DNA of 13,056 nt from Methanothrix sp. (GTDB taxonomy: Archaea; Halobacteriota; Methanosarcinia; Methanotrichales; Methanotrichaceae), in contig JAJRAX010000153.1 of the NCBI GenBank assembly GCA_028679775.1, forward strand, positions 1-13,056. The letters are read 5' to 3'. The position numbers and the translations under genes are program-made. The number at the start of each line of letters is the position of its first letter. Position 1 is the stretch's first letter. Positions 366 through 9,788 of this stretch are shown one piece after another. Under the pieces are notes generated by a model, which saw only the letters and a list, made by a program, of their open reading frames with translations, made no database searches and had not been told where the DNA came from.

Positions 366-1379
366 TCAGCCGCAGGGTGCTAAAGCCTCGTTGTTCTTGT
401 ACGTCTTGGCGATAAAAGAACCATTCATTGTGCTGTTAATGTCCAGCGTGCCCTTAAGAATCTTGAGCCGTACGAGAGACTCATAAAGATATGCCAGATC
501 TTCTTCTGTCGGCCTCAGGCTGGCATAGGAGACGCCCCATCTGAAGCACTCGTCCATGATACTCTTGTCAATCGCGATCTGGTCTCCAACCGTTGGCACT
601 GTCATATTATGGTTCCTGTCGATGAAGAACCCGGACCCAACGTAGCCGTCGGTCAGCTCCTGCACAGTTTTGGGATACCTGGCAATGAAATCCCGGTCGA
701 GCGTCAGAACACAGCAGGTCTCGTTCCTCCAGATATCCTGGGAGCGGCGCAGCCATTTTGCCTGGCCTGCCAAAACGCTCCCGGCTCCGATATACTGGTC
801 AGCCACGTATCCTTTGATCTCGCCCCTGGATAGCGCTGCAGCCATCTCTTCCGGTTCCATCTCAATAAGATCCACTCCGCCGAAATTGGTATCGTTTTTA
901 AAGGCGCGATAAAGGAGAATGGTGCAGGTCGATGCAAGAGCGGGCACTGCAACCTTTCGGCCTGACAGATCGCGGATTGATTTGACATCATTGGCCACAA
1001 TCAGGGCATTTCCATGCCGGTGGCTCTTGGCCACAATCTGGAGAGCGACGCCCTCTTCCGCGGCCTGCAAGTCCAATGCCGCCGGGAGCGATGCTCCTTG
1101 AATTGAGCCTGAACGCAATGCTTCAATCAGGTCGTCCCAGGAGTCGAACTTGATGAGCATAAAATCCATGTTTTTGAAGTTGGGCGCATAGAGCTTGTTG
1201 AGAACAACCGGATCTATGGAGTGGACGGTGGGAACATATCCGAGCGACAATTCCGGCACATCCTCAGGCTGCTCAGACTTGGGGCCGAAAATGCTGTTCA
1301 ATATGCTCCAATCCCAGCCCAAGGCGGGCGTGATCAAAACGATTAGCGTAAGGATAATCAATAGCAGTATCTTTTTCAA
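366..1379 (-). CDS. ABC transporter substrate-binding protein, SsuA/TauA/NMT1-like
   Basis: Predicted extracytoplasmic binding protein of 337 residues that would capture a small, probably sulfur- or nitrogen-containing organic compound. I chose the TTG start at 1379. It follows GGGGAAATAAGG and opens directly into a signal-peptide-like N-terminus (MKKILLLIILTLIVLITPALG, residues 1-21), whereas the longer open frame would begin upstream of the likely promoter. The mature part starts at about residue 44 with SLGYVPTVHSIDPVV. It continues through GSIQGASLPAALDLQ (91-105) and IRDLSGRKVAVP (135-146), the usual lobe pattern of the SsuA/NMT1 family. No lipobox cysteine is seen, so anchoring is uncertain. 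The gene is divergent from the first nitrogenase-like pair across 340 bases. No permease or ATPase gene is in the window. The family call is firm; the ligand is unknown, with sulfonate, sulfide-ether or nitrate-like compounds possible. Confidence 0.8.
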   Translation of the reverse strand: MKKILLLIILTLIVLITPALGWDWSILNSIFGPKSEQPEDVPELSLGYVPTVHSIDPVVLNKLYAPNFKNMDFMLIKFDSWDDLIEALRSGSIQGASLPAALDLQAAEEGVALQIVAKSHRHGNALIVANDVKSIRDLSGRKVAVPALASTCTILLYRAFKNDTNFGGVDLIEMEPEEMAAALSRGEIKGYVADQYIGAGSVLAGQAKWLRRSQDIWRNETCCVLTLDRDFIARYPKTVQELTDGYVGSGFFIDRNHNMTVPTVGDQIAIDKSIMDECFRWGVSYASLRPTEEDLAYLYESLVRLKILKGTLDINSTMNGSFIAKTYKNNEALAPCG

Positions 1380-1437
1380 CCTTATTTCCCCTATCAGAGG
1401 ATTAAAATCGCTTCCTAGACAATCTTCCTGTGCAATA

Positions 1438-1500
1438 CTTTCCGAGAGAGATGGGGGTCGGGCTTCCCCATTTGTTGAGGTGGTTTTTTGCCTCGGAAAG
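1438..1500 (-). promoter_or_regulatory. Structured 5' leader of the binding-protein mRNA (candidate cis-regulatory RNA)
   Basis: Read on the minus strand, a perfect 9-base stem CTTTCCGAG / CTCGGAAAG (1500-1492 with 1446-1438) closes a 63-base element. Inside it is a second perfect stem ATGGGG / CCCCAT (1471-1466 with 1456-1451) with a 9-base loop, plus an A-rich and CCACC-containing single strand. The element ends about 60 bases before the TTG start. It matches no riboswitch class I can name. Whether the transcript includes the whole outer stem depends on a start site near 1495-1500, inferred from the TATA-like box at 1516-1527. It might instead be a DNA-level repeat. Confidence 0.4.
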
Positions 1501-1515
1501 ATACGGCACAAAAGA

Positions 1516-1527
1516 GGTATATTAAAG
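1516..1527 (-). promoter_or_regulatory. TATA-like box for the binding-protein gene
   Basis: On the minus strand the sequence CTTTAATATACC resembles an archaeal TATA box. Transcription would start roughly 25 bases downstream, near 1497, giving a leader of about 115 bases before the TTG start at 1379. That leader would carry the stem structure described at 1438-1500. This is inference from composition and spacing only. Confidence 0.4.
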
Positions 1528-1644
1528 GCCAGAATTTCCAACTACTTAAGAACCACCTCCACGATCTCCAGAATCAGCAGATCCATCATTTTATTTCACC
1601 AATTCATGAATAGAACTCAAATTGATATTAAATCTGACATAGTG

Positions 1645-1719: not shown

Positions 1720-3252
1720 ATGCATTCTTCTCAGAATCTGATTAATCAAGAGATAGACCTGTCAGAGAACACCTGCCCCAATCGCGAGCAGCGCGCCAGA
1801 GGGATTAACGTCTATTACGGCCGGGCCTCCGAGCTGGTCCGGGACGCCAAATGCGGAAAGCTGCAAAACCGGGAACGAAAGTTCCAGCAGGCATCCGGCT
1901 GCGTCCTCAACTTCTACCTATCGGTTCGAGTCAACACCATCAGGGATGCTGCTGCCATCTTTCACGCTCCGGTAGGCTGCTCTGCGCCGGCTCTGGGGTA
2001 CAGAGAACTCTTTCGGGATATTCCGGTAGATCTGGGCAGACCTGAGAACTTCGACCTGCACTGGATGACTACCAATATCAACGAGCAGGATGTGGTCTAC
2101 GGAGCGGCAGATAAGCTCAGGTTCGCGATTGAGGAGGCTGAACGCAGGTATTCCCCCAGGGCCATATTCATCCTGACCTCATGCGTCGCAGGAGTGATCG
2201 GCGAGGATATCGAGGGCGTGGTAAACGATGTCCAGCCCTTTTGCAGCGCCAGGATCGTTCCCGTCCACTGCGAGGGCGTGCGCTCCAGGCTGGTTCAGAC
2301 CGGCTATGATGCATTCTGGCACGGAGTACTGAAGTATCTGGTGAAGAAGCCGGAAAAGAAGCAGAAGGATCTGGTCAATGTGGCCAGCATGCTCTCTTAC
2401 ACCTGGCAGGATCGTCGGGAGATCACCAGGCTTCTCGGCAAGCTCAGCCTTCGCCCCAACTTCGTGCCGGAGTTCGCAACTGTCGAGCAGTTCGAGCAGC
2501 TTTCAGAGGCGGCAGTCACGGCTCCGCTCTGCCCGACCTATACCGACTATCTCTCCAAAGGCCTTGAGCAGGAGTATGGTGTGCCTTACTTCCTCTATCC
2601 GTCACCCATGGGCATAGCCAGCACGGACGAATGGTTGCGCAAGGTGGCCCGGTTTACCGGAAAAGAGGGCGAGGTAGAAGCGCTGATTGATGAAGAGCAC
2701 AAAAAGTGGCAGCCGAAACTGGATATTATCCGAAAGGAGCTGGAGGGGTTCAAAGGGAACGGAGAGAAGATCGAGGTTTTGGGATCGTTAGGACAGGGCC
2801 GGCTGCTTGCTCAGCTCCCGTTCTTCGATGAGCTGGGCTTAAGCTCCAAAGCAGCCATGGCCCAGGACTTTGACAATCTGATTTTGGAGGAGGTAGAAGA
2901 CCTGATCGGCAAAGTGGGAGACTTCGAGATACTGGTCAACACCTTCCAGGCCGCAGAGCAGGCTCATATCACGAGAAAGCTCAACCCTGACCTGGCGCTC
3001 ACCTGTCCATTCCAGGGAGGTGCCTACAAACGGCTGAAGGGAATAACCAGAATTCATGCTTTACGAGGCGACTCCCTTCCCTGGAGCGCGCAAAGCGGTT
3101 ATGCAGGAGCCGTGTCCTATGCAGCCTTCCTCTTGCAGTCGCTAAAGAGCGTCTCATTCCAGAGGACCATGCTAACCAAAACCCGCGACAGCTACAGGGA
3201 TTGGTGGTATGACCAGCCGAATCCGTTGCACTACCTGGAAAAGGAGGCTTGA
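1720..3252 (+). CDS. Nitrogenase-like component 1 alpha subunit, copy 1 (D1; MarD-like)
   Basis: NifD-family subunit of 510 residues that should pair with K1 and receive electrons from the H protein. The ATG at 1720 has GAGGG 7 bases upstream; the longer open frame would read through the promoter. Cys61 (ASGC), Cys87 (APVGC) and Cys155 (LTSC) match the P-cluster ligands Cys62, 88 and 154 of Azotobacter NifD. Cys271 (APLCPTYTDYL) matches cofactor ligand Cys275, and His446 (TRIHALRG) is the best candidate for His442. The segment matching NifD Gln191/His195 has Val192 and Tyr196, so ordinary N2 reduction is unlikely. A separate K subunit follows, unlike homodimeric CfbD. The overall character fits the methylthio-alkane reductase (group IV) branch; that function is inferred. 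The stop lies 4 bases before K1, and GGAGG for K1 sits in this gene's last codons. Confidence 0.88.
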   Translation: MHSSQNLINQEIDLSENTCPNREQRARGINVYYGRASELVRDAKCGKLQNRERKFQQASGCVLNFYLSVRVNTIRDAAAIFHAPVGCSAPALGYRELFRDIPVDLGRPENFDLHWMTTNINEQDVVYGAADKLRFAIEEAERRYSPRAIFILTSCVAGVIGEDIEGVVNDVQPFCSARIVPVHCEGVRSRLVQTGYDAFWHGVLKYLVKKPEKKQKDLVNVASMLSYTWQDRREITRLLGKLSLRPNFVPEFATVEQFEQLSEAAVTAPLCPTYTDYLSKGLEQEYGVPYFLYPSPMGIASTDEWLRKVARFTGKEGEVEALIDEEHKKWQPKLDIIRKELEGFKGNGEKIEVLGSLGQGRLLAQLPFFDELGLSSKAAMAQDFDNLILEEVEDLIGKVGDFEILVNTFQAAEQAHITRKLNPDLALTCPFQGGAYKRLKGITRIHALRGDSLPWSAQSGYAGAVSYAAFLLQSLKSVSFQRTMLTKTRDSYRDWWYDQPNPLHYLEKEA

Positions 3253-3256
3253 AAGA

Positions 3257-4606
3257 ATGACTTCAAACAATTCAGAGGCATCGGTAATATCTGAGCCTAA
3301 ATACCCGGAGGTAATGGAAGCGCCCCGCTATTCATGCGCTCTCGGCGGAGCTATCTCCACAGCGTTAGGCATCTTTGGGACGGTGCCCATCCTTCACTCA
3401 GGGGCCGGCTGCGGTCAGGCCCATCTCAACGGCCAGGCCTACGGTTGTGGTGAGAATGCCGGTGGCCCCCAGGGCGGCACCAGCACACCATGCTCCTGCC
3501 TGGTAGAGGAGCATGTCATCTTCGGAGGCGAGAATAAGCTGAGAAATCTGATCCAATCGAGCATCGAGCTGATGGATGGCGATCTTTATGCGGTGATTTC
3601 CGGATGCGTGCCAGCTCTGACCGGCGACGATGTGGAGTCGGTGGTCAAGGAGTTCAAAGAAAAGGCGAACATCATCTCTATCAAAACTGCAGGCTTCATA
3701 GGCAACTCCTACAAAGGCTATGAGCTTTTCTTCCTGTCGACGATAGATCAACTGCTTAAGCCCTTGCCCGTGAAAAAGGGGAGAATTAACATCTTCGGAG
3801 TTGTGCCCTACCAGCATCTTTTCTGGAAAGGGGACTTAAAGGTTCTGAAAGGTACTTTGCAGAGGCTGGGAATTGAGGCAAACATAATTCTTCGGGAATT
3901 TAACGGTCTCGCGAATCTCCTGGAGATTCCGGCAGCCGAGCTGAATGTCGTTCTGTCGCCCTGGAATGGTCATGAGATTGCTAAATCGCTTCAAGAGAAG
4001 TTCGGCACATCTTATCTGACATTTCCAGGAGTGCCGGTCGGCCCCAAACAGACCTCGAATTTTCTGCTGCAATTGGCCGGGCGGCTGAACATCCCGGAAG
4101 AAAAAGTGCAGGAGATCATCGAAGAGGAAGAGCGCATAGCTTATCGGTTCATCGAGTATTTGGGAGACGTCCACATCCTCGGTCTGCCGCATCCCTACTT
4201 CGCGGTGGTGGCCGACAGTGGGACTGCGATTGGCGTCACTCAATTTCTGGCCAACGAGATGGGCTATCTGCCTGAGACGGTCATCATAACAGACAATCCG
4301 CCTCAAGAAGCGAGAGCGGAGATCATCCATCAGCTTTCTGTGAACATCGAGAGCATCTTCAAGCCCGATATAATCTTCGAGTCGGATTCGCATAAAATCA
4401 GGCTGAAGCTGCGAGACCGCAGTTTCCTGGTGCTGCTGGCCAGCTCTTTGGAGAAGTTTATTGCGGCCGATCTTGGAGCAACCGTTCATTTGAGCGTCTC
4501 ATTTCCATCATTTGACCGGCTCATTTTAGAACGCAGCTACGCAGGTTTTGGCGGCGGTCTGAACCTGATGGAAGACATATTGAGCAAAACTGTGGCACCG
4601 CTGTAG
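3257..4606 (+). CDS. Nitrogenase-like component 1 beta subunit, copy 1 (K1; MarK-like)
   Basis: NifK-family subunit of 449 residues, partner of D1. The ATG at 3257 follows GGAGG (3243-3247) and starts 4 bases after the D1 stop. Cys27 (YSCALGG), Cys52 (GAGCGQ) and Cys117 (ISGCVPALTGDD) match the three NifK P-cluster cysteines. The segment LVEEHVIFGGENKL (82-95) is the usual NifK core. Two further cysteines, Cys64 (YGCGEN) and Cys81 (PCSCLVEE), are glycines in the second copy, so this subunit may differ in cluster environment or redox behaviour. The C-terminus (YAGFGGGLNLMEDIL) is intact. At 449 residues it is shorter than many NifK proteins, which carry N-terminal extensions. A six-T run lies just beyond the stop (4618-4623), before the aminotransferase. 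The family is certain; the substrate is inferred. Confidence 0.88.
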   Translation: MTSNNSEASVISEPKYPEVMEAPRYSCALGGAISTALGIFGTVPILHSGAGCGQAHLNGQAYGCGENAGGPQGGTSTPCSCLVEEHVIFGGENKLRNLIQSSIELMDGDLYAVISGCVPALTGDDVESVVKEFKEKANIISIKTAGFIGNSYKGYELFFLSTIDQLLKPLPVKKGRINIFGVVPYQHLFWKGDLKVLKGTLQRLGIEANIILREFNGLANLLEIPAAELNVVLSPWNGHEIAKSLQEKFGTSYLTFPGVPVGPKQTSNFLLQLAGRLNIPEEKVQEIIEEEERIAYRFIEYLGDVHILGLPHPYFAVVADSGTAIGVTQFLANEMGYLPETVIITDNPPQEARAEIIHQLSVNIESIFKPDIIFESDSHKIRLKLRDRSFLVLLASSLEKFIAADLGATVHLSVSFPSFDRLILERSYAGFGGGLNLMEDILSKTVAPL

Positions 4607-4641
4607 AAAGCTTTAACTTTTTTATTCTTGTGAAGGATATC

Positions 4642-5814
4642 ATGCCGCCGTTGAGCAATCGCATAGGTTTATTCACCGAATCTGTCATCAGGAAGATGAC
4701 AAGAATCGCCAGTGCCTACAACGCTGTCAACCTCTCCCAGGGCTTTCCTGATTTCGACCCGCCGCAGCAGCTTTTGCTGGCTCTCAAAAAGGCTTCCACC
4801 TGCGGCCCTCATCAGTATGCAGTAACCTGGGGCGCACCTAATTTCCGTGAGGCTCTGGCCAGGAAGCAATCTCGATTTATGGGGCTTGATATCGACCCCG
4901 AGACGCAGATTTGCGTTACCTGCGGAAGCACAGAAGCTATGATGACCGCCATGATGACTGTCTGCAATCCAGGTGATAAAGTCATAGTGTTCTCGCCGTT
5001 TTATGAGAATTACGGGGCCGATGCCATACTGTCCGGAGCTCTTCCAATCTACGTGCCTCTCTCTCCTCCTGATTTCTCATTCGACGTTGAGGAACTGACC
5101 CGCGCATTCCAGCAAAGGCCAAAGGCTCTGATTCTATGCAATCCGTCCAATCCTACTGGGAAGGTCTTCACCGAGAATGAGCTGAAACTCATTGCCGATC
5201 TGGCTGACCGATATGATACATTTGTGATCACTGATGAGGTCTATGAGCATATCGTGTATTCTCCGAATAAACATGTCTATTTTGCGTCTCTGCCAGGCAT
5301 GTTCGAGAGGACCATCTCCTGCAGCTCGCTATCCAAAACCTATTCCATCACAGGCTGGAGACTGGGATATCTGATTGCTCCGGCTAAGATCATCGATGGC
5401 GCGAGAAAGGTGCACGACTTCCTGACAGTTGGGGCTCCAGCGCCCCTGCAGGAGGCGGCGGTGACTGCATTGAACTTTCCGGATCGGTATTATGAACGTC
5501 TCCAGGAATTGTATACGGGAAAGAGGGACTTCTTCATCAAAGGCCTGGATGAAGCAGGACTGGAATACACCAAACCACAGGGCGCCTATTATGTGATGGT
5601 CGACATCTCCGAGTTTGAGTGTCCGAGTGATACCGTTTTTTGTGAATGGCTGGCCAGAGTTGTGGGCGTCGCTGCAGTTCCCGGATCAAGCTTCTTTAAA
5701 GAAGATGTTGGGCATCTAATCCGCTTGCACTTTGCAAAAAAGCAGGAAACGCTCGCAGACGCCCTGGAAAGGCTCTCACATCTTAGAAGCCTGGCAGAGA
5801 AGGGCATAAATTGA
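4642..5814 (+). CDS. PLP-dependent class I/II aminotransferase (YbdL/KAT-like)
   Basis: Cytosolic aminotransferase of 390 residues that moves an amino group between an amino acid and a 2-oxo acid. I chose ATG 4642 with GAAGGA just upstream (4632-4637); an in-frame GTG at 4630 would add four residues. The opening [21 protein letters not shown] followed by [10 protein letters not shown] is typical of the subfamily that includes kynurenine/glutamine aminotransferases and E. coli YbdL, which prefers methionine. Visible key residues are NPSNPTGK, Asp198 and Tyr201 (TDEVYEH), the PLP lysine Lys232 ([14 protein letters not shown]) and the carboxylate-binding Arg361 (LIRLHF). It starts 35 bases after K1, so it is probably in the same unit, although the T-run between them may reduce read-through. 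A role in making methionine from its keto acid would fit a C-S cleaving neighbour, but the substrate cannot be read from sequence. Confidence 0.85.
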
Positions 5815-5838
5815 GGGGCTTTTTCAGGCCCAACTTTT
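5815..5838 (+). terminator. Probable transcript end after the aminotransferase
   Basis: Immediately after the stop codon, GGGC (5816-5819) can pair with GCCC (5828-5831) around a loop holding a five-T run. Another four Ts follow at 5835-5838. Archaeal termination mainly needs T-runs, so this is plausible. The next promoter element begins about 45 bases downstream. Confidence 0.4.
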
Positions 5839-5884
5839 CCCATTGCGCCTTTATCTCAGGCCTATTTTAAGCCTTTCTGTTAGA

Positions 5885-5920
5885 GCAATATTTGCATGTT
5901 TCTTCATCAATAAATATCAA
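5885..5920 (+). promoter_or_regulatory. Promoter of the H-D2-K2 unit with shared upstream element
   Basis: GCAATATTTGCA, two bases, then TTTCTTC lies at 5885-5905, followed by a TATA-like ATAAATATC starting at 5910. This repeats the element before D1 (1645) with only the two middle bases changed, at the same offset to the TATA-like box. The GCAA-N3-TTGC core is a perfect inverted repeat. Transcription would start near 5937, about 35 bases before the GTG start of the H gene. The TATA-like sequence here overlaps the longer open frame, which argues that the H protein begins at 5972. Confidence 0.65.
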
Positions 5921-5971
5921 GCCGATTACTATCGATTATCGTTAAAGAGCGCCCACTTTGAGGTGGCAATA

Positions 5972-6901
5972 GTGACAAAGATAAGAAACATCGCAATATA
6001 CGGAAAGGGAGGCATCGGCAAATCCACGACCTCCTCCAACATCAGCGCCGCCCTCTCGGAAGAGGGTTACAAGGTCATGCAGATAGGCTGCGATCCAAAG
6101 AGCGATTCGACGAACACTCTCCGAGGCGGCAGGTTCGTGCCTACTGTCCTCGACAAGCTGCGTAGCGGCAAAAGGATCGAGACCAACGAGATCGTCCACG
6201 AGGGATTCAACGGCATTCTCTGCGTGGAGACAGGAGGCCCGGAGCCTGGCGTCGGCTGCGCCGGGAGGGGGATCATCACGGCAATCGAGCTTCTCAAGCA
6301 AAAGAAGATCATTGAGGAGTTCTCACCGGATATCATCATCTATGACGTTTTGGGTGACGTCGTCTGCGGTGGATTTGCCATGCCGATCCGCGAGGGAGTG
6401 GCCGAACAGGTCTACACAGTCAGCTCCTCGGATTTCATGTCTTTGTACGCTTCCAACAATCTCTTCAAAGGCATCAAGAAGTACTCCAAGAGCGGCGGTG
6501 CCCTTTTCTCAGGCATCATTGGCAACTCCATAAATCTGCCCATAAATGAAGAGATCATCCAGGATTTTGCAGCCAATACCAAATCGACCATCGCAGGATT
6601 CGTGCCGCGTTCTCTGACGGTAGCCAAGGCCGAGCTGCAGGGCAAGACCACCATCGAAGCCGACCCGGATTCAGATCAGGCTGAGCTCTACCGGAACCTC
6701 GCCCGGAAGATAATCAGCAATGAGAGCCGATATGTGCCTGCACCTCTCGGCACGGACGAGCTGAAGGCATGGGCCGAGAGCTGGTACGACAGGCTGCTAC
6801 AGCACAATAAAAATCAGGAACAACAGGACACCGAACCAGTAAAAAGCGACCTGAAGTACTACGAGCTGAAGCCGGACAGCGCAAAAGCCAAGGTGAAATG
6901 A
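5972..6901 (+). CDS. NifH-like Fe protein / component 2 reductase (H; MarH-like)
   Basis: ATP-dependent electron donor of the nitrogenase family, 309 residues, acting as a dimer with one [4Fe-4S] cluster. The GTG at 5972 is preceded by GAGGTGG (5960-5966); earlier in-frame codons lie in the promoter. The P-loop [10 protein letters not shown] is at 10-19. The cluster cysteines are Cys96 (GVGCAGRG) and Cys132 (DVVCGGF), and Arg99 is the residue ADP-ribosylated in some NifH proteins. The switch region reads [14 protein letters not shown], where classic NifH has CDPKADSTRL, placing it outside canonical NifH. After the NifH fold a charged tail of about 40 residues (from roughly 270) extends beyond the usual length. 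It is the only H protein in the window, so it probably serves both D/K pairs. The stop is one base before the D2 start. CfbC or another group IV reductase is the alternative identity. Confidence 0.9.
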
Positions 6902-6902
6902 G

Positions 6903-8441
6903 ATGGCATCTAATGATGCTCATAATCTGGTCGAGCCTGGCATAAACCTGAATGCTCCCACATGCCCCAACCGGGAGCAACGTGCCCACGGCATCAATGT
7001 CTACTACGGCCAGGCGTCTCAACTTTTAATCGATGCAAGAGAAGGAAAGCTTCAGGCCAAGGACCGCGACTTTCAGCAGACCTCCGGCTGCGCTCTAAAC
7101 TTTTACCTGGCAGTGAGGCTCAACACCATCCGAGATGCGGCTGTAATCTACCATGCGCCCGTCGGCTGCTCGGCGTCATCTCTGGGATATCGAGAACTCT
7201 ATCGGCATGTTCCGGTTAGCCTCGGCAGACCTGAGAATTATGACCTGCACTGGATAACAACCAACATCCAGGAGAACGATGTGGTTTATGGAGCGGGAAA
7301 TAAGCTGCGCTATGCAATCCGAGAGGCGGAAAGGAGGTACTCGCCCAAAGCTATATTCATCCTGACATCATGCACCTCCGGGGTCATCGGCGAGGATATC
7401 GAGGGGGCTGTGAATGAGCTTCAGCCCTACATCGACGCCAGAATCGTGCCAGTTCACTGCGAGGGCGTTCGCTCCAGGTTGGTTCAGACTGGCTATGATG
7501 CTTTCTGGCATGGAGTCCTGAAGTATCTGGTAAAAAAGCCTGAAAAGAAGCAGAAGGACTTGGTAAATGTGGCCAGCATGCTATCTTACACCTGGCAGGA
7601 TCGCCTGGAGATCAAGAGAATTCTCGGAAAGATTGGGCTACGGCCAAACTTCGTGCCTGAGTTCGCGTCTGTTGATCAGTTCGAGCAGCTCTCCGAGGCG
7701 GCGGTCACGGCTCCGCTCTGCCCGACTTACACCGACTATCTCTCCAAGGGCCTGGAGCAGGAGTATGGTGTGCCTTACTTCCTCTACCCGTCTCCAATGG
7801 GCATCAGAAATACCGATGAATGGCTGAGAAAGATCGGAGAGTTCACAGGCAAAGAGAGTGAGGTGGAGTTGGTGATTGAAGAGGAGCATAAGGTCTGGCA
7901 GCCCAAGATCGATGCCCTCCGAGAGCAGTTCCTGAAGCTGAAGGGCAAAGGCGAGAAGCTAACCGTCCTCGGCTCGCTTGGACAGGGCAGGCTTCTGGCT
8001 CAGCTCCCGTTCTTTGATGAGATTGGACTGTCTTCGCCAGCTGCCATGTCTCAGGATTTTGATAACCTGATTCTCGATGAGGTAGAGCAACTGATCGGAA
8101 CAGTAGGTGACTTTAAAATCCTGGTCAACACCTTCCAGGCTGCCGAACAAGCTCATGTAACCAGGCAGCTTGATCCTGACATCGCCCTTACCTGCCCATT
8201 CCAGGGCTGCTCATTTAAGAGAGAGAAAGGCCTGACAAGGATTCATTCCCTGCGTGCCGATGCCCATCCCCGGAGCACTCAGAGCGGCTATGCCGGAGCC
8301 GTAGCCTGCGCCAGTTTCCTGCTCCAATCCTGGACAAGCAAGTCCTTCCAGAAGACCATGCTCGCCAAGACCAGAGATAGCTACAAAGATTGGTGGTACA
8401 AGCAGCCCGATCCCCTTCACTACCTCAAGAGGGAGGTCTAA
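6903..8441 (+). CDS. Nitrogenase-like component 1 alpha subunit, copy 2 (D2; MarD-like)
   Basis: Second NifD-family subunit, 512 residues, collinear with D1 and much like it along the full length. The ATG at 6903 follows AGGTGA (6891-6896) in the end of the H gene. Cys63, Cys89 and Cys157 match the P-cluster ligands; Cys273 matches cofactor ligand Cys275, and His448 is the candidate for His442. As in D1, the NifD His195 position is Tyr (198) and Gln191 is Val (194). Differences from D1 cluster near the presumed active site: TSCTSG against TSCVAG, FQGCSFKR with an added Cys436 against FQGGAYKR, and IHSLRADAHPRSTQ against IHALRGDSLPWSAQ. This suggests a different substrate preference or division of labour. 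The tight H-D2-K2 order matches the H-D-K order of Mar operons. Substrate inferred only. Confidence 0.9.
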   Translation: MASNDAHNLVEPGINLNAPTCPNREQRAHGINVYYGQASQLLIDAREGKLQAKDRDFQQTSGCALNFYLAVRLNTIRDAAVIYHAPVGCSASSLGYRELYRHVPVSLGRPENYDLHWITTNIQENDVVYGAGNKLRYAIREAERRYSPKAIFILTSCTSGVIGEDIEGAVNELQPYIDARIVPVHCEGVRSRLVQTGYDAFWHGVLKYLVKKPEKKQKDLVNVASMLSYTWQDRLEIKRILGKIGLRPNFVPEFASVDQFEQLSEAAVTAPLCPTYTDYLSKGLEQEYGVPYFLYPSPMGIRNTDEWLRKIGEFTGKESEVELVIEEEHKVWQPKIDALREQFLKLKGKGEKLTVLGSLGQGRLLAQLPFFDEIGLSSPAAMSQDFDNLILDEVEQLIGTVGDFKILVNTFQAAEQAHVTRQLDPDIALTCPFQGCSFKREKGLTRIHSLRADAHPRSTQSGYAGAVACASFLLQSWTSKSFQKTMLAKTRDSYKDWWYKQPDPLHYLKREV

Positions 8442-8444
8442 AGC

Positions 8445-9788
8445 ATGGCAGCAGTTATTGAGGAACGCCCAGAGGACGTGATTTATCCAGAGGTCATGGA
8501 GGCTCCCCGGTATTCCTGTGCTCTGGCTGGCGCTTACTCCACAGCAGTCGGAATCTACGGAGTGGTGCCCATTCTTCATTCCGGGCTTGGATGCGGCATT
8601 GGCCAGCTCTTCGGCCAGTTTTATGCCGGTGGCCAGAATGCAGGAGGACCGCAGGGCGGCACGAGCACTCCCTGCTCAGGGCTGGTCGAAGAGCATGTCA
8701 TCTTCGGAGGCGAGGACAAGCTGAGGAGACTCATAAAGTCGAGCATCGAGCTGATGCAGGGCGACCTTTATGCTGTCCTATCAGGCTGCGTTCCATCTCT
8801 GACCGGAGACGACATAGAATCTGTGGTCAAGGAGTTTCGGGAACAGGCACCTATCATCTACGTTAAGACTGCCGGATTCCTGGGCAATTCCTATGAAGGC
8901 TACGAGCTCTTCTTCGAGGCAGTGATTGATCAGCTCCTGAATAAGCTGCCCATCAAGAAAGGGTTGGTAAATATCTTCGGAGTGGTTCCCTATCAACACA
9001 TCTGGTGGAAGGGAAACCTGAGGGCCATCAAAGAGGATCTGCAGAAGCTCGGCCTGGACGTTAATATCATATTCACAGAGTTTTCCGGATTGGAGAACCT
9101 GATCAAGATCCCTGCTGCGGAATTGAATATCGTCCTGTCTCCCTGGAATGGACAGCGAGTGGCAAAGAAGCTCGAAGAGAAGTTCGGCACGCCTTTTATC
9201 ACTCTGCCGGGCGTTCCAGTAGGACCCAAGCAAACCACCAGGCTGATCCAAGAAGTGAGCCAGGCTCTGAATCTTCCCACAGAACCTGTGGACGAACTGA
9301 TCGCCAGAGAAGAGAGGCATTCATACCGATTTGAGGAGTATTTCGGAGACGTGATGATTCTTGCCTTCCCGCAGCCATACTTCTCTGTAGTGGCCGATGC
9401 AGGGACTGCTGTAGGCATCGCCCAGTTCTTGACAAATGAGGTTGGCTATCTGCCGGATAAGGTGATAATTGATGACGGCACGCCTGAGGAGAATAGAGAG
9501 GAAATTTTGAGGGAGCTGAAGGAGAATCTGGAATGCGTTGTCAAGCCGGAGGTGATCTTTGATGAGGATTCGCATAGGATACGAGAGAACCTGAAGAAAG
9601 GAAACTCGCTCGTTCTATTGGCCAGTTCTCTGGAGGGGCCGATAGCTTCAGAATTTGGCTGCGTGATACATGTAACCGTATCCTTCCCGTCCTATAACCG
9701 GCTCATCCTCGACCACAATTATGCCGGCTACCGAGGCGGGCTACGGCTCATGGAGGATATTGTAAGCAAATACTGCGGACCGCTTTAA
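8445..9788 (+). CDS. Nitrogenase-like component 1 beta subunit, copy 2 (K2; MarK-like)
   Basis: Second NifK-family subunit, 447 residues, partner of D2. The ATG at 8445 follows GGGAGGT (8431-8437) and lies 3 bases after the D2 stop. P-cluster ligands are Cys25 (YSCALAG), Cys50 (GLGCGIG) and Cys115 (LSGCVPSLTGDD). Compared with K1, the stretch after Cys50 is GIGQLFGQFYAGGQN rather than GQAHLNGQAYGCGEN, and the second half of PCSC is PCSG, so the two extra cysteines of K1 are missing. Cores such as EEHVIFGGEDKL and the C-terminal YAGYRGGLRLMEDIV are shared. The protein is complete and ends the H-D2-K2 unit, with a terminator-like sequence overlapping its last codons. Confidence 0.9.
   Translation: MAAVIEERPEDVIYPEVMEAPRYSCALAGAYSTAVGIYGVVPILHSGLGCGIGQLFGQFYAGGQNAGGPQGGTSTPCSGLVEEHVIFGGEDKLRRLIKSSIELMQGDLYAVLSGCVPSLTGDDIESVVKEFREQAPIIYVKTAGFLGNSYEGYELFFEAVIDQLLNKLPIKKGLVNIFGVVPYQHIWWKGNLRAIKEDLQKLGLDVNIIFTEFSGLENLIKIPAAELNIVLSPWNGQRVAKKLEEKFGTPFITLPGVPVGPKQTTRLIQEVSQALNLPTEPVDELIAREERHSYRFEEYFGDVMILAFPQPYFSVVADAGTAVGIAQFLTNEVGYLPDKVIIDDGTPEENREEILRELKENLECVVKPEVIFDEDSHRIRENLKKGNSLVLLASSLEGPIASEFGCVIHVTVSFPSYNRLILDHNYAGYRGGLRLMEDIVSKYCGPL

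What the first reader, a model, noticed from the sequence alone, without database searches (positions are those of the whole stretch)
1720..9788. One Fe protein serving two distinct nitrogenase-like D/K pairs in an archaeon
Directly seen: D1-K1 and H-D2-K2 are arranged in tandem with a single H gene, and all subunits are full length with cluster cysteines intact. From the known families, F430 biosynthesis uses a homodimeric CfbD without a K subunit, and Mar operons carry one H-D-K set. A doubled pair plus aminotransferase and binding protein would be an expanded system. It could have two C-S reductases with different substrates, or one pair could be a cofactor-building scaffold like NifEN. No nifB, nifE or nifN is in the window.
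Basis: partly seen in the sequence, partly recalled or inferred. Interest (0 to 1): 0.8.

Follow-up and report, generated by a model that had tools for sequence, protein, structure and literature searches.

The report
Two nitrogenase-like reductases, one electron donor
A methane-producing archaeon carries two complete copies of an uncharacterised nitrogenase-like enzyme that probably frees sulfur from organic compounds, both apparently fed electrons by one shared partner protein, an arrangement that its relatives take even further.

Summary
Confirmed: the window (a Methanothrix-like MAG) encodes D1-K1-aminotransferase-H-D2-K2, all intact, with all P-cluster cysteines, the Cys275-type ligand and one Fe protein. 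D1/D2 are 77% and K1/K2 65% identical. H groups with MarH. The D and K subunits form their own well-supported clade near MarDK, not inside it, and far from Nif, Vnf and NifE. MarD's His429 ligand and His194-Trp195 are absent, as are nitrogenase's Gln191 and His195. Best explanation: two isoenzymes of a Mar-like sulfur-scavenging reductase (probably C-S cleavage at a NifB-derived cluster) sharing one Fe protein. The NifEN-like scaffold idea for one pair is disfavoured: both pairs keep the same ligands, and 9 of 12 genomes counted have a single clade pair. Sharing recurs: one non-Cfb Fe protein with two pairs (G204, one contig) or four (G072), and one clade-type Fe protein with three clade pairs (G285, one contig). 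Of 25 clade loci, 11 have an NMT1-type binding protein and 7 a MetY-like (homocysteine/methionine synthesis) gene within 10 kb. Tandem pairs and one-to-many Fe proteins are already in print (2012, 2022): a new variant of a known kind. The aminotransferase is widespread and may be incidental. Substrate, cluster type and Fe-protein sharing are untested.

The parts
366..1541 (-). NMT1/SsuA-type ABC substrate-binding protein ORF (probable true TTG start near 1379, before a signal-like peptide), divergent from D1
   Evidence: PF13379 E 1.5e-19; best NCBIfam SsuA_fam 82 bits, below its cut-off of 163.5; start codon read
1720..3252 (+). D1: nitrogenase-like alpha subunit, 510 aa
   Evidence: PF00148; best PDB sequence match MarD 9fmg/9d9u 243 bits, next chain 97 bits; ligands
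3257..4606 (+). K1: nitrogenase-like beta subunit
   Evidence: PF00148 E 2.2e-66; K tree; three P-cluster Cys
4630..5814 (+). Class I aminotransferase, methionine-aminotransferase-like but widespread; possibly incidental
   Evidence: PF00155; the 25 NCBIfam matches shown are all below cut-off; 7998 of 7998 scored candidates match, listed relatives 76-78% identical in clostridia
5963..6901 (+). H: Fe protein (NifH/MarH type), the only one in the window
   Evidence: PF00142 E 5.2e-98; MarH 408 bits, next PDB chain 286 bits; H tree
6903..8441 (+). D2: nitrogenase-like alpha subunit, 512 aa
8445..9788 (+). K2: nitrogenase-like beta subunit, 447 aa
   Evidence: PF00148 E 1.6e-69; MarK 9d9u_C 271 bits, next chain 100 bits

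Best explanation
D1K1 and D2K2 are two isoenzymes (paralogues) of an uncharacterised group IV nitrogenase-like reductase clade related to methylthio-alkane reductase. The MarH-type Fe protein H docks on either heterotetramer and passes ATP-driven electrons through a P-cluster to a NifB-derived iron-sulfur-carbide cluster held by Cys273 and a residue of the 431-453 loop. The enzymes reductively cleave organosulfur compounds, most likely at a C-S bond, to feed sulfide or methanethiol into cysteine/methionine synthesis. The two pairs probably differ in substrate. Shown: gene set, intact ligands, clade, Fe-protein type, sulfur-linked neighbourhoods in some relatives. Inferred: shared use of H, cluster type, C-S chemistry, different substrates.
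Against: No activity, expression or sulfur-growth data. NMT1-type transporters carry other solutes too. In 14 of 25 loci no such binding protein and in 18 of 25 no MetY-like gene was seen within 10 kb (some contigs end early). Only 5 of 25 have a NifB-like gene nearby. The second cluster ligand is unresolved, and the 432-449 loop of the model has pLDDT under 50. The own MAG is 83% complete, so other Fe proteins may be missing; it also has a VnfH and a CfbC-like Fe protein, and D'K' in G204 or G072 could use CfbC instead. Copies in two Methanosarcina-type genomes are broken (G177, G195), so the function is dispensable there.
Confidence: 0.57

Rival explanations
1. One pair (D1K1) is a cofactor-building scaffold for the other, as NifEN is for NifDK.
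For: Tandem pairs of this class were suggested to be scaffolds in 2012 (PMC3464626 section 11, read). In L019/G072 a more diverged pair D'K' lying directly after DK lacks the DK loop motif and is followed by NifB-like and NifX-like genes, so D'K', not D1K1, is the better scaffold candidate.
Against: D1 and D2 share all ligand positions and 77% identity. Seven of the 12 genomes counted have one clade pair and no D'K' (G006, G399, G403, G318, G141, G179, G205; G006 is 66% complete). D1/D2 show a moderate conversion signal over the cluster-binding core.
Confidence: 0.1
2. The two pairs are redundant copies of one enzyme (dosage, or recent gain) with no difference in substrate.
For: High identity; D1 and D2 have identical residues in the two long runs 179-234 and 259-301 that line the active site; G006 carries only H-D2-K2.
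Against: D1 and D2 belong to two sister subclades, each with its own members in other datasets. K1/K2 are only 65% identical. The loop 441-460 differs. Both are kept by selection.
Confidence: 0.22
3. One or both pairs are group IV nitrogenases that reduce N2.
For: Cys275 equivalent kept; NifB present in the genome.
Against: Positions of Gln191 and His195 are Val (122 of 134; Met, Ile, Leu or Ala in the rest) and Tyr (134 of 134). The D tree places them outside Nif/Vnf (100/100). The genome already holds a Vnf operon and NifK/E/N-type genes.
Confidence: 0.05
4. The tandem is an assembly join of two separate loci.
For: MAG of 410 contigs, which seems to hold sequence variants (C151 and C330 overlap by 548 bases at 93% identity); no second genome with D1-K1-AT-H-D2-K2 was seen among those searched; the relative UBA80 has other genes upstream of H-D2-K2.
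Against: No N in the window. Genes are closely spaced (4, 23, 148, 1 and 3 bases). Multi-pair clusters of this clade exist in the single-contig genome G285.
Confidence: 0.06

Closest known systems
Methylthio-alkane reductase MarBHDK (Rhodospirillum rubrum, PDB 9FMG/9D9U; PMC12552129)
   Same: Closest sequence for D, K and H and closest fold for D; P-cluster Cys; Cys270 cluster ligand; MarH-type Fe protein; NifB-like gene nearby in 5 of 25 loci
   Different: Own clade; no counterpart of MarD His429, His194, Trp195 or Phe199; carries its own Cys431 (132 of 134) and invariant His448, Arg451, Asp453
Multiple NflDK pairs: Syntrophobotulus glycolicus (nine pairs, PMC3464626) and Heliophilum fasciatum (one NflH, five NflDK, PMC9147875)
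   Same: Several nitrogenase-like pairs, linked genes, in Heliophilum one Fe protein; a Syntrophobotulus protein (P0185) matches at the level of this clade, though it was not put in the tree
   Different: Here in methanogens, with trees, a ligand survey and genome-wide Fe-protein counts for this clade
Isethionate reductase IsrBHDK (Rhodobacter capsulatus, PMC11423573)
   Same: Group IV, SsuA-type transporter, sulfur assimilation
   Different: IsrD keeps one of three P-cluster Cys and lacks the Cys275 equivalent (from the paper); the clade here keeps all
NfaHDK / group IV-A genes near methyl-sulfur gene clusters (PMC10418091 passages)
   Same: MarHDK-like, close to methionine, MetY, CysK and methionine-aminotransferase genes
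   Different: No IV-A reference sequence was at hand, so identity with that group was not tested; it may well be the same group

Membership tests
Methylthio-alkane reductase (Mar) | Six P-cluster Cys and Cys270 ligand | tested here: met
Methylthio-alkane reductase (Mar) | Arg428-His429 dyad of loop I (hallmark proposed in PMC12552129) | tested here: not met
   No Arg-His dipeptide in residues 425-440 of any of 134 rows (2 rows have one elsewhere in 419-458); His429 has no counterpart by MAFFT or hhalign; the two Mar-like L022 proteins keep the dyad
Methylthio-alkane reductase (Mar) | His194 and Trp195 at the S2B site | tested here: not met
   Leu/Ile/Val at the first and mostly Val at the second position in 134 rows
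Methylthio-alkane reductase (Mar) | D and K inside the Mar clade | tested here: not met
   Separate clades; their branching order with the D'K' lineages is unresolved
Methylthio-alkane reductase (Mar) | Fe protein of MarH type | tested here: met
Methylthio-alkane reductase (Mar) | ATP-dependent reduction of methylthio compounds | not testable with these tools
   needs enzyme
Mo/V/Fe nitrogenase | Gln191 and His195 of NifD | tested here: not met
   Val (122 of 134) and Tyr (134 of 134)
Mo/V/Fe nitrogenase | His442 cofactor ligand | tested here: inconclusive
   Invariant His448 lies 2 columns from His442 in MAFFT and 5 in hhalign; model loop has low confidence
Mo/V/Fe nitrogenase | Grouping with NifD/VnfD and NifK/VnfK | tested here: not met
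   NCBIfam scores far below cut-offs
NifEN scaffold (for D1K1) | Ligand set differing from that of the catalytic pair, or grouping with NifE/NifN | tested here: not met
   Same ligands in D1 and D2; trees
CfbCD | D homodimer without K | tested here: not met
   Two K genes; H not with CfbC
Isethionate reductase (Isr) | IsrD with one of three P-cluster Cys and no Cys275 | tested here: not met
   All present here; the Isr feature is taken from PMC11423573
BchNB | Score over the family cut-offs | tested here: not met
   70.9-93.3 bits against the 490 bit cut-off of the BchB model; best BchN score 55.3 against 324
NfaHDK (group IV-A) | Clade membership with Endomicrobium/Paenibacillus NfaDK | not tested
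   No NfaD sequence was obtained

The most novel reading that the evidence does not exclude
A modular reductase: one Fe protein powers a set of two to four exchangeable DK catalytic modules, each tuned to a different organosulfur compound, with gene conversion keeping the cluster-binding core alike while the substrate loop diverges. The active site would hold a carbide cluster in a way not yet seen in nitrogenase or Mar.
Probability: 0.25. Interest if true: 0.75.

Novelty: new variant of a known kind. Interest (0 to 1): 0.5.

Why it matters
If true, methanogens and anaerobic methanotrophs hold a further kind of sulfur-releasing nitrogenase relative whose cluster pocket differs from both nitrogenase and Mar. 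That would give a new reference point for how the protein, not the cluster, sets the chemistry, and a possible sulfur source (and hydrocarbon source) in anoxic settings. Genomes such as G204, with this system and CfbCD but no other nitrogenase-type D/K genes, make the one-Fe-protein-many-partners question directly testable.

Tried and rejected
A D tree with CfbD as outgroup gave an implausible root through long branches, so the tree was rebuilt without it; in both, several long branches meet, and the order among the D'K', Mar and clade lineages stays open. The D2 model was meant to settle the His442 question, but residues 432-449 have pLDDT under 50. The aminotransferase as part of the system: rejected as specific evidence because the 120 listed relatives (75-100% identical) reach into clostridia; the D-K-aminotransferase order in G285 (53% identity) is noted only. 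NifB as support: six of eight genomes, among them the window's own and G204 (which has no nif D/K/E/N), have NifB over the cut-off, but 2 of 14 control genomes also pass, and I recall that methanogens without nitrogenase carry NifB, so it is weak; G072 has only NifB-like genes under the cut-off and G006 fragments. Gene conversion: Fisher p 0.0075 for a region chosen after looking; 149 of 5000 shuffles reach the best segment when the choice of region is allowed for, so only moderate.

Rows dropped: L012, L018 and L020 (short or broken D) from the D alignment; L010, L011, L023 and a C330 fragment from the second tree. The chance rate of a MetY-like or transporter gene near a random locus was not computed. 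No NfaD (group IV-A) sequence turned up.

Full report
What is there. The window is contig C398 of a 2.34 Mb, 410-contig genome estimated 83% complete. Genes on the + strand are D1 (1720-3252), K1 (3257-4606), a class I aminotransferase (4630-5814), H (5963-6901), D2 (6903-8441) and K2 (8445-9788), with gaps of 4, 23, 148, 1 and 3 bases. The 148-base gap before H suggests two transcription units (inference). An NMT1-type binding-protein ORF is divergent upstream (366-1541) and a glucan phosphorylase follows. The nearest named relative is Methanosaeta sp. UBA80, whose H, D2 and K2 are 92, 96 and 90% identical, without D1-K1 on the held contig. Of 26 genomes searched in the genus, only the window's own and one other (G006, 66% complete) have D matches of 77% identity or more; other matches are 38% or less. 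In wider searches at E 1e-90 or better, 13 of 237 genomes of the class and 11 of 392 drawn from the phylum match, some of them by D' only in addition to D.

Ligands. D1 and D2 keep the three alpha-side P-cluster Cys and the Cys275/Cys270-type ligand; K1 and K2 keep the three beta-side Cys; H keeps both cluster Cys. Across 134 clade D rows (the 120 listed hits plus 14 loci) these four Cys are invariant, as are Gln195, Tyr198 (at the nitrogenase His195 / Mar Phe199 position), His448, Arg451 and Asp453; Cys431 is present in 132. Counterparts of MarD His429 and of His194-Trp195 (PMC12552129; abstract and sections 4, 6, 8 and 12 read) are missing: no row has Arg-His in residues 425-440, while two Mar-like proteins of an Oscillospiraceae locus (L022) keep both pairs. 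Whether His448 takes the place of nitrogenase His442 is open: MAFFT puts it 2 columns away, hhalign 5, and the predicted loop is unreliable. Dos Santos et al. 2012 (PMC3464626, section 11 read) described nitrogenase-like proteins with Cys275 but without His442. The numbering of NifD residues is recalled.

One Fe protein, several pairs. Counts were made genome-wide in 12 genomes (own; seven; four). Five of 12 have more pairs of this clade or its D'K' cousins than clade-type Fe proteins: G072 4 (two clade, two D'K'), G285 3 (all clade), the own genome at least 3 (D1K1, D2K2, and D'K' on C330, with a second D' copy or strain variant on C151 that overlaps it by 548 bases at 93%), G204 2 and G189 2 (one clade, one D'K' each). 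The other seven (G006, G141, G179, G205, G399, G403, G318) have one. So 9 of 12 have a single clade pair. G204 is one contig of 3.1 Mb: its two Fe proteins (E 1e-30 or better) are H and one beside CfbD, and its five Oxidored_nitro places (E 1e-12 or better) are DK, D'K' and CfbD, so either H serves both pairs or D'K' uses CfbC. In G072 the same holds for four pairs. G285 has one H within a cluster of three clade pairs, besides a nif Fe protein and a third Fe protein of another H-D-K trio. G189 has further Fe proteins of other types, so there the inference is weaker. Physical sharing is not shown by any of this.

Context. In 25 clade loci, within 10 kb of D: H in 20, NMT1-type binding protein in 11, ABC ATPase in 11, ABC permease in 9, MetY-like in 7, NifX-like in 6, NifB-like in 5, FMN-type oxidoreductase in 3, HgdB/HgdC-type in 2, D' in 2, aminotransferase in 2. 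Of five MetY-like proteins scanned, three (L154 8686-10089, L158, L091) pass the O-acetylhomoserine sulfhydrylase cut-off TIGR01326 and two (both in L154) do not. G285 has D-K-aminotransferase beside cysteine synthase (over the TIGR01136 cut-off), a cystathionine gamma-synthase-like gene (498 of 513 bits), cysteinyl-tRNA ligase and O-acetylhomoserine sulfhydrylase genes. A Chlorohelix plasmid has ABC transporter genes, a radical SAM gene, H-D-K of this clade, a NifX-type gene and O-acetylhomoserine sulfhydrylase, followed by a second NifB-NifX-H-D-K set whose D and K are Mar-type. This fits sulfur assimilation, as known for Mar and for isethionate reductase (PMC11423573: abstract, passages and section 12 part 1 of 2 read), and the report that MarHDK-like group IV-A genes sit near methionine and MetY genes (PMC10418091, a preprint, passages read).

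D1 against D2. dN/dS is 0.11 for D1/D2 and 0.08 for K1/K2, the latter with saturated dS. Synonymous differences between D1 and D2 drop in residues 101-301 (0.36-0.57 against 0.74-0.78 outside), a drop weaker against the UBA80 orthologue (0.58-0.69 against 0.72-0.86) and not clear against G204. At fourfold sites 16 sites group D1 with D2 and 15 group D2 with UBA80 inside this region, against 11 and 40 outside (Fisher p 0.0075; 149 of 5000 shuffles when the region is free). I read this as moderate evidence that the paralogues have long shared a genome and exchanged the cluster-binding core.

Against. Nothing is measured. D copies in two genomes carry internal stops (G177, G195). The aminotransferase is widespread. 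No second genome with the exact window order was seen in the genomes searched. In print: nine pairs in Syntrophobotulus and tandem pairs proposed as scaffolds (PMC3464626), one NflH with five NflDK in Heliophilum (PMC9147875, passages). My searches (listings, abstracts and the passages named above) showed no paper on this methanogen clade's function; PMC8674449 (passages) mentions abundant nitrogenase-like transcripts in a Methanothrix bin without saying which clade, and PMC9012536 (passages) treats other ANME nitrogenases. The 2020 paper that defined Mar was not seen; it is cited through the others.

Verdict. The system is a pair of isoenzymes of an uncharacterised Mar-related clade with one Mar-type Fe protein, probably for sulfur scavenging; a new variant of a known kind.

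Noticed in passing
   Followed up: partly
L154 3448-15725 (G285): A sulfur amino acid island: cysteine synthase, cystathionine gamma-synthase-like, cysteinyl-tRNA ligase, O-acetylhomoserine sulfhydrylase, a methionine-gamma-lyase-like gene, then aminotransferase, K and D of this clade.
   Followed up: partly
G285:C1:2155649-2158572 and matching places in G318 (C6), G403 and G399: A further Fe protein next to two short D/K-like proteins; in G318 the only Fe proteins found are this one and the clade-type H, so CfbC of F430 synthesis must be one of them or be shared.
   Followed up: no
L032 1-1569 and L033 3-2927 (own contigs C151, C330): Further nitrogenase-like D'K' genes of the same genome, on C330 followed by an NMT1-type binding protein; D' keeps the four Cys but lacks the TCPFQG...H motif. 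The two D' pieces overlap by 548 bases at 93% identity (two copies or two strains).
   Followed up: partly
L022 9986-20004: Oscillospiraceae locus with two convergent Mar-type DK pairs, a radical SAM gene and one Fe protein that groups with NifH/VnfH rather than MarH.
   Followed up: partly
L098 11094-30287: Chlorohelix plasmid carries this clade's H-D-K and a Mar-type H-D-K in one region, with Fe proteins 88% identical to each other.
   Followed up: partly
L096, L097 (G195, G177): Copies of the clade D gene broken by internal stops in two genomes of the class.
   Followed up: no
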